A DNA stretch of 64,000 nucleotides from Pseudomaricurvus alkylphenolicus. GTDB taxonomy: Bacteria > Pseudomonadota > Gammaproteobacteria > Pseudomonadales > Cellvibrionaceae. The position numbers and the translations under genes were made by a program. Shown here piece after piece: positions 50,961-62,092 of the stretch. Below the pieces are notes generated by a model, which saw nothing but the letters and a program-made list of their open reading frames with translations, was not told where the DNA came from and made no database searches. Numbering within the stretch: the stretch's first letter is position 1; every line of letters starts with the position of its first letter. The stretch spans positions 1-64,000 of the forward strand of contig NZ_JAAQPI010000018.1 of assembly GCF_011683955.1 (NCBI RefSeq), given 5' to 3'.

Positions 50961-51281
50961 TCATAATTGATTTTCCGGCAGTCGAACCACCAATCCATTC
51001 AGATTTTGGTTGAGCTCCAATTGGCACGACAAGCGGCTGTTGGTATTGACTTCAGCTGCACACTCCAACAGATCTTTTTCAATGTCCTCCGGTGGTGGAA
51101 ATCTGTTTTTCCAGGCATCCTCTACATAGGTGTGGCAGGTAGCGCAGGCGCCTGCTCCGCCACAATCTGCGGAGATTCCGGGAATGGCAGCACCGGTAAT
51201 GGCCTGCATCAGAGATTGATCATGCTCCGTTTTCACTATGTGCACTGTCCCATCGTGTTCAATCACGGTAATGTCTATCAT
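50961..51281 (-). CDS. 2Fe-2S ferredoxin (adrenodoxin type), likely P450 partner
   Basis: The 106-aa ferredoxin has Cys40, Cys46, Cys49 (DCGGAGACATC) and Cys86 (SRLSCQL), the CX5CX2CX36C spacing of vertebrate-type ferredoxins. It is divergently placed from the cytochrome P450 gene, so it probably delivers its electrons. No ferredoxin reductase is encoded nearby. Confidence 0.88.
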   Translation of the reverse strand: MIDITVIEHDGTVHIVKTEHDQSLMQAITGAAIPGISADCGGAGACATCHTYVEDAWKNRFPPPEDIEKDLLECAAEVNTNSRLSCQLELNQNLNGLVVRLPENQL

Positions 51282-51585: not shown

Positions 51586-52866
51586 ATGACCGAATCAACA
51601 ATAGAAGATATGAAGCTGGAAAATGCCTATTCAGCCGTTTCTGCGACTTATAAAGGTACGGATATTGATATCCATGAGGCGTGTCGTGAGATGCGTGAAA
51701 CCACACCCGTATATGAGGGAGATTTTATTGCCCAGTTTGGTGTTCCTACAAACGCGGGTTTGGCTCTAGGGACACGCCCCAACTTTGCACTCTTCAAATA
51801 CAATGATGTGATGTCCGTATTACGCGATGGCGATACCTTTACCAACGGCTTTATTGCTAAAGGATTCGGTGAGGCGTTTAACGGTTTGACTATTTTGGCA
51901 ATGGACGGAGACGAGCACAAAAGCGTCCGTCAATTATTACACCCAGCGTTTATGCCCGCTTCGGTTAACAAGTGGCACGACCGTATTGACGAAGTGATCC
52001 GTCGCGACTATATCCTACCGATGGTGGCGGATAAGAAGGCGGATTTGATGACGTTTGGATTGGATTTTCCTCTGCGAATTATGTACGCACTGATGGGTTT
52101 TCCCGAGGATGACGCGGAGAAATACCGAAAATACGCGGCTTGGTCGTTGGCGATGGTTGGCGGAAATCAAATTGATCCGGACAAAGTAGATGACGCCAAA
52201 ACGACGGCGAAACAAGCAAGTAAAGCGCTGTATCAAGCGATTAATGAAGTGGTGGTTTCTCGCCGTGCCGCTGGTAGTGAGGGAGACGACCTGATCGGAC
52301 GTTTGTTGCGCGCAGAGCATGAAGGACGCATGTTAAACAACCACGAAGTCGTGACATTCGCAATGATGCTGCTGCCCGCGGCGGGTGAAACAACGACTCG
52401 AACGTTGAGCTCAGTATTGACCATCATGTTTACTACTCCGGGCCTGTTAGAGAAGGTGCGTGACAATCGAGAACTGATTCCGAAGCTGATTGACGAGACC
52501 GTACGCTACGAGCCCGTAGCGACCTTTAAGGTACGCGAAGTCGCCAAAGATGTTGAAATTCGAGGCGTCAGTATTCCCAAAGGCTCTTTCGTCCAGTGTA
52601 TGGTGACGTCGGCCAACCGCGATGAAGAAGCGTTTGAAAATGGAGAAACGTTCGACGTAGACCGCAAGGCGAAACCTTCATTCGGCTTTGGCTTCGGACC
52701 GCACATGTGCATTGGTCAGTTTGTTGCTAAACTGGAGCTGAAAAACGCACTCAACGCCATTTTTGACCTGCTACCAAACATTCGTTTGGACCCCAGCAAG
52801 CCGGCTCCAGTCATCGAAGGTGCTCAGCTACGAGGCGCGTCTTCAGTGCATGTGATTTGGGACTAA
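51586..52866 (+). CDS. Cytochrome P450
   Basis: The 426-aa soluble monooxygenase has the I-helix AAGETTTRT (Glu268, Thr269-270), the K-helix ETVRYEP (Glu304 and Arg307), and the heme loop FGFGPHMCIGQF with Cys375. It is a bacterial class I P450, using the ferredoxin encoded divergently, and would hydroxylate the pathway's hydrophobic substrate. The sequence alone does not identify the substrate. Confidence 0.93.
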   Translation: MTESTIEDMKLENAYSAVSATYKGTDIDIHEACREMRETTPVYEGDFIAQFGVPTNAGLALGTRPNFALFKYNDVMSVLRDGDTFTNGFIAKGFGEAFNGLTILAMDGDEHKSVRQLLHPAFMPASVNKWHDRIDEVIRRDYILPMVADKKADLMTFGLDFPLRIMYALMGFPEDDAEKYRKYAAWSLAMVGGNQIDPDKVDDAKTTAKQASKALYQAINEVVVSRRAAGSEGDDLIGRLLRAEHEGRMLNNHEVVTFAMMLLPAAGETTTRTLSSVLTIMFTTPGLLEKVRDNRELIPKLIDETVRYEPVATFKVREVAKDVEIRGVSIPKGSFVQCMVTSANRDEEAFENGETFDVDRKAKPSFGFGFGPHMCIGQFVAKLELKNALNAIFDLLPNIRLDPSKPAPVIEGAQLRGASSVHVIWD

Positions 52867-57559: not shown

Positions 57560-57675
57560 ATAGCTCAGTTATGAGGAAGCCCACAAGCTTTCGCCACCAG
57601 ATCTTCTATTTCAATTACAACCGTTCGATGGAAAAGCCAGAGCTGTTTCATCGATTGATATCGAGAGAGTTATCT

Positions 57676-59307
57676 ATGACAGGTATGGGAAACCCAGAAA
57701 CGTGGTCATTGGGTGAACAGGACACGGTCATCGCGGCCCTGGATCGAGCCGTCGCCGCGCATCCGGATCGGGTTCTGTTGGACTTTAGTGGTGATTTGTA
57801 TACCTATAAAGAGGTTGATACTCTCGCGACTAAACTGGCGAACGCCCTCAGGGCGCTTGGCGTTAGTAAGGGACAGACGGTTGTCACCATGCTTGACAAC
57901 AATATTGACGCTGTTGTGAGTTGGTTGGCAGTCAACAAATTGTGCGCCATCAGCGTTCCCATTAACACAGCGCTGCGAGGTCAATTTTTACAGCATCAAA
58001 TTTCAGATGCGGCCACTGAAATTGTTATCTGTGAAGCGGCATATGTCGACCGAGTCGCACAATTGACGCCGCAACTGGCGACCCTCAAGCGCGTGCTTTA
58101 TCGCGATAGTCTTGACGTCGTGCCTGGTAGTGAGATTCCGCTGGTGCCACTGGACGAGCATCGAGGACAGGATGCAACTCCATTGATGGAAAAACCCGAG
58201 CCCTCCGATCTCGCTTGTATTATCTATACCTCCGGTACCACGGGTCCTTCCAAAGGTTGTATGCTCAGTTACAACTTCATGTGCAGTCTGGCACGCCTGC
58301 AGCTAAGGGCAGGACCTGCCACCGCTGATGACGTGACCATTACGCCCTTGCCATTGTTTCACATGAATGCGCTTTGTGTCGGTATACTCTCAAACATTAT
58401 GGTGGGCGCGCGGGTAGCCATTGTGCCGCGTTTTTCAGTATCAAAATTCTGGCCGGAAGTCCGTCGTTCTGGAGCGACTATCGCCTCGATTCTCGGCAGT
58501 ATGGGCGGCTTGCTCGCTCAGGCCGATGACAACGTGGATATGAAAGCCTGTCATGGACAAATCCACACGGTGCGGGGAAACCCGTTCACGGAAGAGTCAA
58601 AAATGATCTGGCGTCAGCGTTTCGGTGCCCGTCAGGTCGGTGGTAACGGCTATGGTTTGACGGAAGCCTGTGTTATCACCTCGCTACCCGGTGGAGAGTA
58701 CGCGGCTCCGGGCTCCTCAGGTAAACGTATCCCCGAGTACGATGTGCGCATTGTCGATGACCTGGATCGAGAATTGCCCACCAACACGGCCGGAGAAGTC
58801 GTGGTACGGCCAAACCATCCGGATATCATGTTTATGGGGTACTGGAATCGCCCGGAAGAAACCCTGAAACTGATGCGCAATATGTGGTTTCACACCGGTG
58901 ACATCGGGAAATTTGACGATGATGGTTTTTTCTATTTTGTTGACCGAAAAAAGGACTATTTGCGTCGCCGAGGTGAGAATGTCTCCAGTTTTGAGATGGA
59001 GTCCGCCTTTGCGGGTCATAGCGATATTGAAGAAGTAGCTGTGCATGCGGTGCCCTCGGACAAGGGTGAAGATGATGTCAAAGTCACTGCAATTCTCAAT
59101 CACGGAAGTGATCTGACGGCAGAGGCACTGTTTTATTGGGCTGTCGATGTGGTGCCCTACTATGCTCTGCCGCGCTATATCGAATTTCGTCAGGAGCTTC
59201 CCAAAAACCCTCAGGGAAGGGTGCTCAAGTACCTGTTGCGCGACGAAGGTAAGACGGCTGATACCTGGGACCTGGAAGATACCGATATCAAGGTGAGTAA
59301 GCGATAG
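57676..59307 (+). CDS. AMP-forming acyl-CoA synthetase
   Basis: The 543-aa ligase activates an acid to its CoA thioester. Motifs: IIYTSGTTGPSKG (ATP loop), GGNGYGLTEAC, YWNRPEETLKLM, HTGDIGKFDDDGFFYFVDRKKD and a C-terminal GRVLKYLLRD. The P-loop, adenylate and hinge motifs are intact. ATG 57676 is preferred (MTGMGNPETWSLGE); ATG 57628 or 57571 are possible longer starts. It opens an operon with the Rieske genes. Confidence 0.9.
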   Translation: MTGMGNPETWSLGEQDTVIAALDRAVAAHPDRVLLDFSGDLYTYKEVDTLATKLANALRALGVSKGQTVVTMLDNNIDAVVSWLAVNKLCAISVPINTALRGQFLQHQISDAATEIVICEAAYVDRVAQLTPQLATLKRVLYRDSLDVVPGSEIPLVPLDEHRGQDATPLMEKPEPSDLACIIYTSGTTGPSKGCMLSYNFMCSLARLQLRAGPATADDVTITPLPLFHMNALCVGILSNIMVGARVAIVPRFSVSKFWPEVRRSGATIASILGSMGGLLAQADDNVDMKACHGQIHTVRGNPFTEESKMIWRQRFGARQVGGNGYGLTEACVITSLPGGEYAAPGSSGKRIPEYDVRIVDDLDRELPTNTAGEVVVRPNHPDIMFMGYWNRPEETLKLMRNMWFHTGDIGKFDDDGFFYFVDRKKDYLRRRGENVSSFEMESAFAGHSDIEEVAVHAVPSDKGEDDVKVTAILNHGSDLTAEALFYWAVDVVPYYALPRYIEFRQELPKNPQGRVLKYLLRDEGKTADTWDLEDTDIKVSKR

Positions 59308-59331: not shown

Positions 59332-60297
59332 ATGGATAACAAACAATACTGGACTGCAGTTGCGACCAGCGAATATATCAAAGGCGATAAGCCCATCGGC
59401 ATTGTGGTTCACGGCATAGAGTTGGTGCTTTTTCGTGATCAGAACCAATGCGTTAGAGTGTTGGAAGATCGTTGTCCACATCGTCGAGTGCCCTTGTCAT
59501 TGGGCACGGTTTGTGAGGGCCGTATTCGTTGTGCGTATCATGGCTGGTCGTTCGATGGTTCTACAGGTGCATGTGTTGATATTCCCAATCTGGATCGCGG
59601 AGAAAGAATATCTCCTCGTTATCGGGTGAAGACCTTTCAGACCTGCGAGCGGGACGGTTTTGTGTTCGTGGCACCGTCGAGTGAAAAGAGTGAGCCCCCG
59701 GGGGTAGATGTGGAGAATAATCCTCCATCCGAACTCAATGAGCTCTACGGCAACAGTTGCATTGCCATGCCAGTGACAGAATATGTGGCAGCTCTATTGG
59801 ATGGCCCTGAGACGTTGCTGAGGTTTGGGGGGGTTGGGGTTTCTGACTTTTTCCTCGGGGATCCCGTTTATCGCGGAAACTGGCTGGTCTGTGATCGAGA
59901 AGCAAGCTGGGATCGTGGTTCGAAACCCCCCGGCATAAAGGCGATTAGTCGTCCATTGATTCTGCGGGTGGAAATAGAGCGCCACAAGTGCGCGGCGAAG
60001 GTATGGCTGTTGAATGCCGATGAGGAGCCTCTGGCTGTGGTTACCATGGGCTTTTCTTCGGGGATGCGCTCCACCACCACCTTATGTTGGCGCTACCGCC
60101 AATTTCCGGCCTGGCGCCACAACGCACCGGTATGGCTACGGTTATTCCAGCTGCTGGGGCTATCAGCGGTAGATGTCTACACCAGCATTCCCGGAGACGG
60201 CATCGCGGGTTTGCTGAAGGGGCCTTCAAGGCATTTGGAACTACATGTGATGGATCAACACAAGCAAGTAGAGAGCGGAGGAGAGCTGTCATGCTAA
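59332..60297 (+). CDS. Rieske 2Fe-2S protein lacking the mononuclear iron motif
   Basis: The 321-aa protein begins like a Rieske oxygenase and has complete cluster ligands, CPH (Cys48, His50) and CAYH (Cys67, His70), within DRCPHRRVPLSLGTVCEG and IRCAYHGWSFDGSTG. The C-terminal part, where oxygenases carry the DxxHxxxxH iron motif, instead reads VAALLDGPETLLRFGG and shows no such pattern. It overlaps the next gene by seven bases, and the next gene has the reverse defect. I infer that it supplies electrons to its partner. Confidence 0.85.
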   Translation: MDNKQYWTAVATSEYIKGDKPIGIVVHGIELVLFRDQNQCVRVLEDRCPHRRVPLSLGTVCEGRIRCAYHGWSFDGSTGACVDIPNLDRGERISPRYRVKTFQTCERDGFVFVAPSSEKSEPPGVDVENNPPSELNELYGNSCIAMPVTEYVAALLDGPETLLRFGGVGVSDFFLGDPVYRGNWLVCDREASWDRGSKPPGIKAISRPLILRVEIERHKCAAKVWLLNADEEPLAVVTMGFSSGMRSTTTLCWRYRQFPAWRHNAPVWLRLFQLLGLSAVDVYTSIPGDGIAGLLKGPSRHLELHVMDQHKQVESGGELSC

Positions 60298-61346
60298 CGG
60301 TAGCGCAAAAGTCCAAAAAGCATAGTGCTATCGTGGGCGCCAGTGATCCTCATGAGTGGGTACCCACCTGCTATGAATTGCGTGATACCTGGTTTGCGAT
60401 TGCTCATTCCGTGGCGGTAGGCACACGGCCTTTACGGCGAATTGTTCACTCGCAGCCCTACTTTATCTGGCGCGACAACGGTCATCTGCAAGCCGCGGAG
60501 TTTCACCCTCAGAGACCGACAGCTTCCGGTACGTACACCGAATTTACTGCCGGCAGCGGTTACTATCCCGTGGTCGAGCGCTTTGGTTATGTGTGGGCTT
60601 GGTACGGCAATCCGGATGTTGCGGATGTCGATTTGATTCCCGATATACCTTTTTTGCCACGAGATGGCCGAGGTATCCCCGGTTATATGCACACCACCGT
60701 ACGATTTGATGGTTGTTCCAGTTTGTCGGTGGAGAATCTACTCGACCTCACTCACGCCGACTTCCTGCACGGTGAAGTTATTGGCGGAGAAGGTGAAGCG
60801 GACTCCGATGAAGTTACCTTTGAGTGTACTTCCGAGACTCTCACGCGAACGCGATGGGTAGTGGGTAAGCCGGTGTCACCGATTATGCGCTGGGTCGGTG
60901 GAGTGCGAACCAAGTATCAAGAGTTTCGTTCAACACTTCATGTACATTTGCGCAATAATATGTGCATTTCCTACCCACGGTTCCGACCCGGTTTTGATAT
61001 TCCCAATGCTCAGCCGTTTATTCCCAACGGAAGCTATCGTTCGCTGGTCAATCAGATATTCAACCTTAATGCTGCGCCCACGCCATTTCGGCAGGTTATG
61101 CCGCGTATGGCCTATACCATCGGGCCGCAAGACAACTACGCCGTTCGACCCCAGAATCCCAGGTACCTGGAGGGTGAGAGTCAGACGGATTTTCACTCCC
61201 GGTTCGACGCACCGGGGGTGCGCTATCGCCATTTGATGAAGAAGCTCTGGCAGCGTCAGGCGGAAGGCGATTTCAGCTATTTGGCCGATTCTGACCCAGG
61301 TGGAGACATTACAACCTTACTGGGGATGGAAAATAGAGTTGAGTAG
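60291..61346 (+). CDS. Rieske-oxygenase-like protein with catalytic iron motif but no 2Fe-2S ligands
   Basis: The 351-aa protein keeps an oxygenase catalytic domain with the iron motif ENLLDLTHADFLH (Asp152, His155, His160). Its N-terminal domain follows the usual Rieske fold (IWRDNGHLQAAEFHPQR, then VVERFGYVWAWYG), but the CxH box is FHPQ and the second CxxH box with the intervening loop is missing, so no cluster can bind. It overlaps the cluster-bearing gene by seven bases, with GGAGGAG eight bases upstream of ATG 60291. The pair is best read as a split oxygenase. Confidence 0.85.
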   Translation: MLTVAQKSKKHSAIVGASDPHEWVPTCYELRDTWFAIAHSVAVGTRPLRRIVHSQPYFIWRDNGHLQAAEFHPQRPTASGTYTEFTAGSGYYPVVERFGYVWAWYGNPDVADVDLIPDIPFLPRDGRGIPGYMHTTVRFDGCSSLSVENLLDLTHADFLHGEVIGGEGEADSDEVTFECTSETLTRTRWVVGKPVSPIMRWVGGVRTKYQEFRSTLHVHLRNNMCISYPRFRPGFDIPNAQPFIPNGSYRSLVNQIFNLNAAPTPFRQVMPRMAYTIGPQDNYAVRPQNPRYLEGESQTDFHSRFDAPGVRYRHLMKKLWQRQAEGDFSYLADSDPGGDITTLLGMENRVE

Positions 61347-61489: not shown

Positions 61490-62092
61490 GTGAACAGTAT
61501 AAATACGGCAGTTTCCAAGCCCAAACGACGCAATAAGCGCTCCGAAAACACCAAAAACGTTATTTTGGCGGCAACGGAGAGGGTTATCCTCAAGACCGGT
61601 GTAGATCGGGTTTCGATTTTAGATGTGTGTAAAGAGGCGAGAATATCCCGAGGGACTTTTTATCGATACTATTCATCTCAGGACGAGCTGCTGGACGCCT
61701 TCTCGCGCTATCGACGTAATCAATTCCACACTAAGCTAGTCGAAGCACTTGAGCCCTATACTGACCCTGATGAACGTTTCGATGCATTCGTTAATTTCCT
61801 TGATGCCTTTCTGCAAAGAGGTGAGCCTCGGCAAATGTTGATTGTGGCGCCAGCCTATTCAATTGGATGGTATCAGCGGATATTTCATGATTCCATCAAC
61901 CGGTTTGAACAGGAACTCAGCGTTGTCTTTGATGCATGGGAGGAGCGCAGCGGCGTAGCAATCGACCGTGAGCTCGTGTGTGAGATGATTCTTCGTTACA
62001 TTATCAGCCATCAATTGGTACCAGCCAACGAGCAGGAGCGACGTGCCTTGCCGAGTCGTATCAAGCGTTTGGTCCGATCTGTTTCCGTTTAA
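61490..62092 (+). CDS. TetR-family regulator
   Basis: The 200-aa regulator has an HTH (VSILDVCKEARISRGTFYRYYSSQDELL) and an unassigned ligand domain. It starts at GTG 61490. It lies between the Rieske genes and the phytoene-desaturase-like gene, so it probably controls one of them. No inducer can be predicted. Confidence 0.85.
   Translation: MNSINTAVSKPKRRNKRSENTKNVILAATERVILKTGVDRVSILDVCKEARISRGTFYRYYSSQDELLDAFSRYRRNQFHTKLVEALEPYTDPDERFDAFVNFLDAFLQRGEPRQMLIVAPAYSIGWYQRIFHDSINRFEQELSVVFDAWEERSGVAIDRELVCEMILRYIISHQLVPANEQERRALPSRIKRLVRSVSV

What the first reader, a model, noticed from the sequence alone, without database searches (positions are those of the whole stretch)
59332..61346. Split Rieske oxygenase: cluster and catalytic iron on two overlapping genes
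The first gene has all four 2Fe-2S ligands (Cys48, His50, Cys67, His70) but no DxxHxxxxH motif. The second has that motif (Asp152, His155, His160) but its CxH box reads FHPQ and the CxxH box is absent. In ordinary Rieske oxygenases both centres sit in one chain, and electrons pass between subunits from a cluster to the neighbour's iron. A heteromer of these two halves could therefore work. A partial precedent is the caffeine demethylase NdmC, which lacks its own Rieske cluster and uses one carried by NdmD. A pair of mutually complementary oxygenase-like proteins is, to my knowledge, not a described class.
Basis: partly seen in the sequence, partly recalled or inferred. Interest (0 to 1): 0.8.

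Follow-up and report, generated by a model that had tools for sequence, protein, structure and literature searches.

The report
Two-gene split Rieske oxygenase
Two neighbouring bacterial genes each encode a Rieske-oxygenase-like protein that has lost one of the enzyme's two metal centres, and because the two were found together wherever either was seen they very probably make one enzyme only as a pair, as is known for one algal enzyme.

Summary
Gene A (59332-60297) keeps all four [2Fe-2S] ligands and lacks the iron site. Gene B (60291-61346) keeps the iron motif D152-H155-H160 and lacks both cluster boxes. It is no sequencing error: the same pair occurs 17 times in 9 genomes of one order and in 4 plasmid records of Alpha- and Betaproteobacteria, A directly upstream of B each time. 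In all 19 aligned pairs A keeps its cluster ligands and B its iron ligands. A and B each form one clade, with largely matching trees. A is predicted to keep a full-length oxygenase fold, and an artificial A-B fusion is predicted with fairly confident relative placement. Best reading: an obligate heteromer in which A's cluster feeds B's iron across the subunit contact. The complex, its stoichiometry, the 12-angstrom distance, the substrate and the reductase are not shown. The novelty claim is too strong: Micromonas chlorophyllide a oxygenase already lies in two chains, and NdmC/NdmD is a looser precedent. This is a new bacterial variant of that kind; my literature searches found no description. 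A C3 ring cannot alternate A and B, so the quaternary structure is a real question.

The parts
59332..60297 (+). Gene A: cluster-bearing, iron-less Rieske oxygenase alpha-like subunit, 321 aa
60291..61346 (+). Gene B: iron-site-bearing, cluster-less Rieske oxygenase alpha-like subunit, 351 aa
60291..60297 (+). 7-base overlap of A and B, suggesting translational coupling (inference)
59473..59481 (+). A: first cluster box CPH (Cys48, His50)
59530..59541 (+). A: second cluster box CAYH (Cys67, His70)
59794..59829 (+). A: decayed iron motif LLDGPETLLRFG; Asp157 kept (aligned with B Asp152), both histidines absent
   Evidence: the places of the lost histidines are read without gaps from Asp157
60498..60512 (+). 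B: remnant of the first cluster box (EFHPQ); the second box is deleted
60744..60770 (+). B: Asp152-x2-His155-x4-His160, bridging aspartate and two iron ligands
   Evidence: roles of the residues from family knowledge
61131..61133 (+). B: Asp281, invariant; probable third iron ligand
   Evidence: role inferred from family knowledge
57571..59307 (+). Acyl-CoA ligase directly upstream; relative at the same place in LSUCC0057, Ww380 and both same-genus pairs
61490..62092 (+). TetR-type regulator directly downstream; relative in LSUCC0057, Ww380 and L102
50961..51281 (-). 2Fe-2S ferredoxin ORF, 106 aa, 8 kb upstream; a possible but unproven electron donor

Best explanation
A and B are the two obligate subunits of one Rieske non-heme iron oxygenase. 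Shown: each keeps exactly one of the two metal sites, and they were found encoded together in every case seen. Predicted: A keeps a whole oxygenase fold and the two can sit against each other. Inferred: a reductase or ferredoxin reduces A's [2Fe-2S] cluster; A's Rieske domain packs against B's catalytic domain as in the head-to-tail contact of ordinary Rieske oxygenases; the electron crosses through B's Asp152 to the iron held by His155, His160 and probably Asp281; B binds and oxidises the substrate. The genes may have arisen by duplication of one complete oxygenase followed by complementary loss, and then spread as a unit into several gene clusters.
For: Pairing: 17 full-length A matches (320 bits or more) and 17 full-length B matches in 9 genomes, always adjacent; the next A-profile match falls to 130 bits and covers only positions 4-163 of 323 (B; A; adjacency). 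4 of 4 plasmid records with near-full-length B at 39% identity or more also hold an adjacent A. Ligands as above. Distance matrices of A and B over 16 pairs correlate, r 0.76, 0 of 10000 permutations as high; A and B are each one clade, 100/100, with largely matching subclades; A plus B as one clade is not rejected, p-AU 0.546. A's Rieske part is 48% and its C-terminal part 25% identical on average, and 20 of its 23 invariant positions lie in residues 21-106. A alone: pLDDT 83.7, pTM 0.81; the 50 best Foldseek matches listed are Rieske oxygenase subunits. A-B fusion: pTM 0.74, against 0.49-0.57 computed for two halves of uncertain relative placement, assuming 0.85 within a half. Intersubunit transfer over about 12 angstroms is the rule in the family (PMC12445004 and PMC7948474, passages). 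Two-chain algal CAO is active with VanB (PMC9615114, passages).
Against: No physical complex, activity or metal content is known. The cluster-iron distance was not measured. The fusion tethers the chains, so its pTM may reflect either of two interface types or a tether effect; its alignment has 22 rows, only 2 of them fused. Foldseek alignments of A have TM 0.48-0.66 and rmsd 5-12 angstroms, so A's fold match is clear in kind but loose in detail. B's dead N-terminal domain is not less conserved than its catalytic half (52% against 45% mean identity), so conservation does not simply track the living metal site. A closed three-membered ring cannot alternate A and B. No dedicated reductase was seen beside the pair. 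Matching trees are expected of any co-inherited neighbours.
Confidence: 0.82

Rival explanations
1. NdmCDE-like: A is a separate electron carrier that meets B only transiently or in a larger complex with a reductase, and is not a stoichiometric oxygenase subunit.
For: NdmC lacks a Rieske cluster and uses one carried by NdmD (PMC4408171, passages). A's C-terminal half has no Pfam match in 16 of 16 members and evolves fast.
Against: A's model is matched by complete oxygenase subunits over 275-365 alignment columns in the 50 rows listed, where a carrier would need only about 110 residues. No reductase domain in A. The fusion model is fairly confident in relative placement.
Confidence: 0.1
2. B is an iron enzyme that gets electrons by another route (a complete Rieske oxygenase of the same genome), and A is a structural or regulatory partner.
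For: The own genome holds 36 Rieske matches, so spare clusters exist.
Against: A's cluster ligands are invariant and its Rieske part is its best-kept part. No other own-genome place matches B closely (next match E 2.6e-12 over residues 91-174). G135 (LSUCC0057) has only three other A-profile matches at E 1e-8 and still keeps the pair.
Confidence: 0.05
3. Decaying or non-functional genes.
For: Each lacks one canonical centre.
Against: Open frames and invariant ligands at 32% (A) and 45% (B) mean identity over 16 pairs, and the same in Beta- and Alphaproteobacteria.
Confidence: 0.03

Closest known systems
Chlorophyllide a oxygenase of Micromonas pusilla, in two polypeptide chains (CAO1 with the Rieske motif and CAO2 with the iron motif: names and assignment recalled)
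   Same: One Rieske oxygenase in two chains; active in vitro with VanB; an architecture such as a trimer of dimers was suggested (PMC9615114, passages). Complementary centres: recalled.
   Different: A eukaryotic alga, pigment synthesis. Here it is a bacterial gene pair with overlapping or adjacent genes. I did not compare the sequences.
NdmC/NdmD/NdmE 7-methylxanthine demethylase
   Same: Oxygenase chain without its own Rieske cluster; the cluster comes from a partner (PMC4408171, passages).
   Different: The partner NdmD is a reductase with an extra cluster, and a GST-like NdmE is needed. Here the partner is itself an oxygenase-like chain.
DdmC dicamba O-demethylase, GxtA/SxtT, and 7QWT guaiacol O-demethylase
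   Same: Among the nearest solved relatives of A by sequence or fold; DdmC and 7QWT nearest for B.
   Different: One chain carries both centres; DMO, SxtT and GxtA are alpha3 trimers (PMC12445004 table).
NdmA/NdmB alpha3-alpha'3 complex
   Same: A Rieske oxygenase complex of two different alpha-type chains (PMC12445004 table).
   Different: Both chains carry a Rieske cluster and act on their own methyl groups (PMC4408171, passages).

Membership tests
Rieske non-heme iron oxygenase, ordinary alpha subunit | CxH...CxxH cluster ligands in the chain | tested here: not met
   Met by A (16 of 16), not by B (0 of 16)
Rieske non-heme iron oxygenase, ordinary alpha subunit | DxxHxxxxH plus a distal carboxylate in the same chain | tested here: not met
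   Met by B (16 of 16), not by A (no A has both histidines at the aligned site)
Rieske non-heme iron oxygenase, as a two-gene unit | Both centres supplied by the encoded unit | tested here: met
Rieske non-heme iron oxygenase, as a two-gene unit | Rieske-plus-catalytic fold in A | tested here: met
   Model and Foldseek, TM 0.48-0.66
Rieske non-heme iron oxygenase, as a two-gene unit | Rieske-plus-catalytic fold in B | tested here: inconclusive
   Catalytic half: VanA_C in 16 of 16. N-terminal half: only the profile match to A and strands in the fusion model; B was not folded alone
Rieske non-heme iron oxygenase, as a two-gene unit | Cluster about 12 angstroms from the neighbour's iron | not testable with these tools
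   No coordinates returned; fusion pTM 0.74
NdmCDE type | Rieske domain fused to a reductase, GST-like third subunit | tested here: not met
   A has only Rieske matches; among the neighbours that got a name none is a reductase-Rieske fusion or a GST (some neighbours got no name)
Two-chain CAO type | Complementary cluster-only and iron-only chains, both required | tested here: inconclusive
   Complementarity met; mutual need not tested; sequence relation to the algal pair not tested

The most novel reading that the evidence does not exclude
A rare but taxonomically spread bacterial family of obligate hetero-oligomeric Rieske oxygenases that cannot use the classical C3 homotrimer ring in full: the A-to-B contact forces another quaternary architecture (an AB dimer, a trimer of dimers, or a mixed ring with one working site), in which every productive electron transfer is intersubunit by construction.
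Probability: 0.4. Interest if true: 0.78.

Novelty: new variant of a known kind. Interest (0 to 1): 0.66.

Why it matters
Intersubunit electron transfer is the accepted mechanism of Rieske oxygenases, but it is usually studied in oligomers where both centres sit in every alpha chain. A natural system with cluster and iron on different genes lets each be mutated, labelled or titrated on its own, fixes the direction of transfer, and raises a sharp question about stoichiometry. It would also be a bacterial case of complementary loss between two halves of an enzyme, and it means that genes annotated simply as Rieske protein and oxygenase should be tested together.

Tried and rejected
Frameshift or assembly error: rejected; 15 junctions show A stops with B in frame relations 0, 1 and 2 and two more pairs were read. 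Solo A or B genes: none found in the 9 genomes; the own genome also gave two partial B-profile matches (E 7.6e-25 and 1.1e-21), which lie in oxygenases that also carry the cluster boxes and were not counted. A second kind of cluster-only oxygenase in the own genome: 30 of its 36 Rieske matches were fetched; of the ORFs with a cluster but no DxxHxxxxH, 7 own-genome ones other than A were read: 6 carry ExxHxxxxH instead, and one reads as a desaturase-Rieske-reductase fusion (by eye, no family search). A dedicated reductase beside the pair: not seen among the named neighbours; the genome holds 38 Fer2 matches. An alignment of all A and B rows to the fusion was useless because A rows aligned to the B half; a subset of 22 rows worked. 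Whether A and B are sister groups is not settled: the free tree parts them, the held tree is equally good, and the branches are long.

Full report
What is there. The window carries two ORFs on the + strand. A (59332-60297, 321 aa) has Cys48-His50 and Cys67-His70 and a Rieske match; B (60291-61346, 351 aa) has Asp152-His155-His160 and a VanA_C match. The likely start of B is the ATG at 60291, inside the end of A; the genes overlap by 7 bases in different frames.

It is a conserved pair. B was sought in genomes held by the tools. In the own order, full-length relatives occurred in 3 of 293 genomes including the own one (E 0.001; 64 of 293 had some match, the others to ordinary oxygenases over part of the length). 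At E 1e-20, only the own genome rang among 274 of the class and 398 of the phylum; 1 of 2 in the family of G029; 5 of 112 in the family of G135; 3 of 120 in the own family, all in the own genus (B profile). Leaving out two partial own-genome matches, that gives 17 B genes in 9 genomes. Each has an A gene directly upstream on the same strand (15, 2). An A profile over the same 9 genomes found 17 full-length A genes, beside the B genes, at 320 bits or more; the next match had 130 bits and covered positions 4-163 of 323.

It also lies on plasmids of other classes. Of 72,556 plasmid records, 78 matched B; 5 covered at least 80% of it, and the 4 with 39% identity or more were Massilia putida, two Croceicoccus marinus strains and Novosphingobium resinovorum SA1 (the fifth has 25.6% identity). 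In three of them the annotated gene upstream is a Rieske protein, and B is called oxygenase or dioxygenase alpha subunit. In the fourth, which has no gene annotation there, the A match lies beside B by coordinates. So the family is rare but spans Alpha- and Betaproteobacteria and Gammaproteobacteria.

The complementary loss. In 16 distinct pairs (the proteins of G135 and G978 are identical, so 17 pairs give 16), the four cluster ligands of A are 16 of 16, and E148, N149, D152, H155, D157, H160, Q280 and D281 of B are 16 of 16. The A column opposite B's first histidine holds a His in 1 of 16 (L103), the column opposite the second in none; Asp157 of A is kept in 15 of 16. Profile comparison places A's LLD on B's LLD (hhalign probability 97, E 8e-11); the columns after it are gapped there, so which A residues stand for the lost histidines rests on reading the alignment without gaps. 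B has no CxH or CxxH in its N-terminal domain in 16 of 16, and the second box is missing from the alignment. The three annotated plasmid pairs, aligned with four others, show the same by eye; the fourth was not aligned. Against a simple picture, B's dead N-terminal domain is as conserved as its catalytic half (52% and 45% mean identity), whereas A's dead half is poorly conserved (25% against 48%).

History. In a tree of 16 A, 16 B and 29 complete oxygenases, chosen as best profile matches among 42 found in fetched loci, A and B are each one clade (100/100) with largely matching subclades; L067 and L091 are placed less consistently. Their distance matrices correlate (r 0.76; 0 of 10000 permutations). 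One common clade for A plus B is not rejected (p-AU 0.546), so one duplication is possible but not shown. Outside the window's own lineage and a few sister pairs the gene neighbourhoods differ, so the pair has moved or multiplied as a unit; one genome holds four.

Structure. AlphaFold2 models A alone with pLDDT 83.7 and pTM 0.81. The 50 best solved matches listed are Rieske oxygenase subunits (DdmC, GxtA, SxtT, 7QWT, KshA, carbazole dioxygenase, NdmA) over 275-365 columns, TM 0.48-0.66 by query length, with rmsd of 5-12 angstroms. A therefore looks like a full-length oxygenase chain with a dead catalytic domain, not a mere ferredoxin. To ask about contact, A and B of the L031 locus, which lie in one frame separated by one TGA, were read as one 656-residue chain with that TGA as Trp. 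The model has pLDDT 80.9 and pTM 0.74. By the pTM formula two good halves of uncertain relative placement would give about 0.49-0.57. This supports contact, but does not say which interface, and the tether may help. No coordinates are returned, so the 12-angstrom test was not done.

Mechanism. In Rieske oxygenases the cluster of one subunit lies about 12 angstroms from the iron of the next and about 45 from its own (PMC12445004, passages; 12.2 and 44 in CntA with a bridging carboxylate, PMC7948474, passages). The pair keeps the two faces of that contact: the cluster loops on A, and the bridging aspartate with the iron ligands on B. Electron flow from reductase to A to B is the natural reading. 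The donor is unknown. A ferredoxin ORF lies 8 kb upstream, and 2Fe-2S protein genes lie four and three genes upstream of A in the annotated Croceicoccus and Novosphingobium records; this is a lead only. The substrate is unknown. The neighbours (acyl-CoA ligase, TetR, FAD proteins; a P450, acyl-CoA dehydrogenase-like and crotonase-like proteins within about 14 kb downstream) point to catabolism, perhaps of a larger hydrophobic acid, by inference.

Architecture. Structurally characterised oxygenases are C3 oligomers (PMC12445004, passages). A three-membered ring cannot alternate A and B, so a mixed trimer would have one productive contact; a dimer, a trimer of dimers or another form is needed for more. 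This follows from geometry and is untested.

What is known. The principle is not new: the Micromonas chlorophyllide a oxygenase lies in two chains, is active with VanB and was proposed to form an architecture such as a trimer of dimers (PMC9615114, passages). The original Kunugi 2013 paper is not held; which chain bears which motif is recalled. NdmC/NdmD is a looser case (PMC4408171, passages). My searches for a bacterial split oxygenase of this kind found none (listings only), in a library that lacks most subscription papers. I rate it a new variant of a known kind.

Noticed in passing
window 50961-51281 (-) and 51586-52866 (+): A 2Fe-2S ferredoxin ORF beside a gene with relatives near the pair in L070, L096 and L102 (64-69% identity); its distant relative in L069 (27%) is a Pfam p450, so it is probably a cytochrome P450.
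   Followed up: partly
L105 and L106 (Croceicoccus marinus and Novosphingobium resinovorum plasmids): F420 biosynthesis genes (cofC and cofD in L105; cofC, npdG and cofH in L106) and LLM-class or F420-dependent oxidoreductases lie within 10 kb of the split pair.
   Followed up: no
L067:7630-9057 (+): A complete Rieske oxygenase (Rieske plus Ring_hydroxyl_A) lies just downstream of one split pair, so split and ordinary oxygenases stand side by side there.
   Followed up: no
own genome G000, 8.9 Mb: The genome holds 36 Rieske and 38 Fer2 matches; contig C9, on which the window lies, holds three of the Rieske matches.
   Followed up: no
window 59332-61346 and relatives: A evolves faster than B (mean identity 32% against 45% over 16 pairs), mostly in its dead catalytic half, while B's dead Rieske-like domain stays as conserved as its living half; why is unexplained.
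   Followed up: partly
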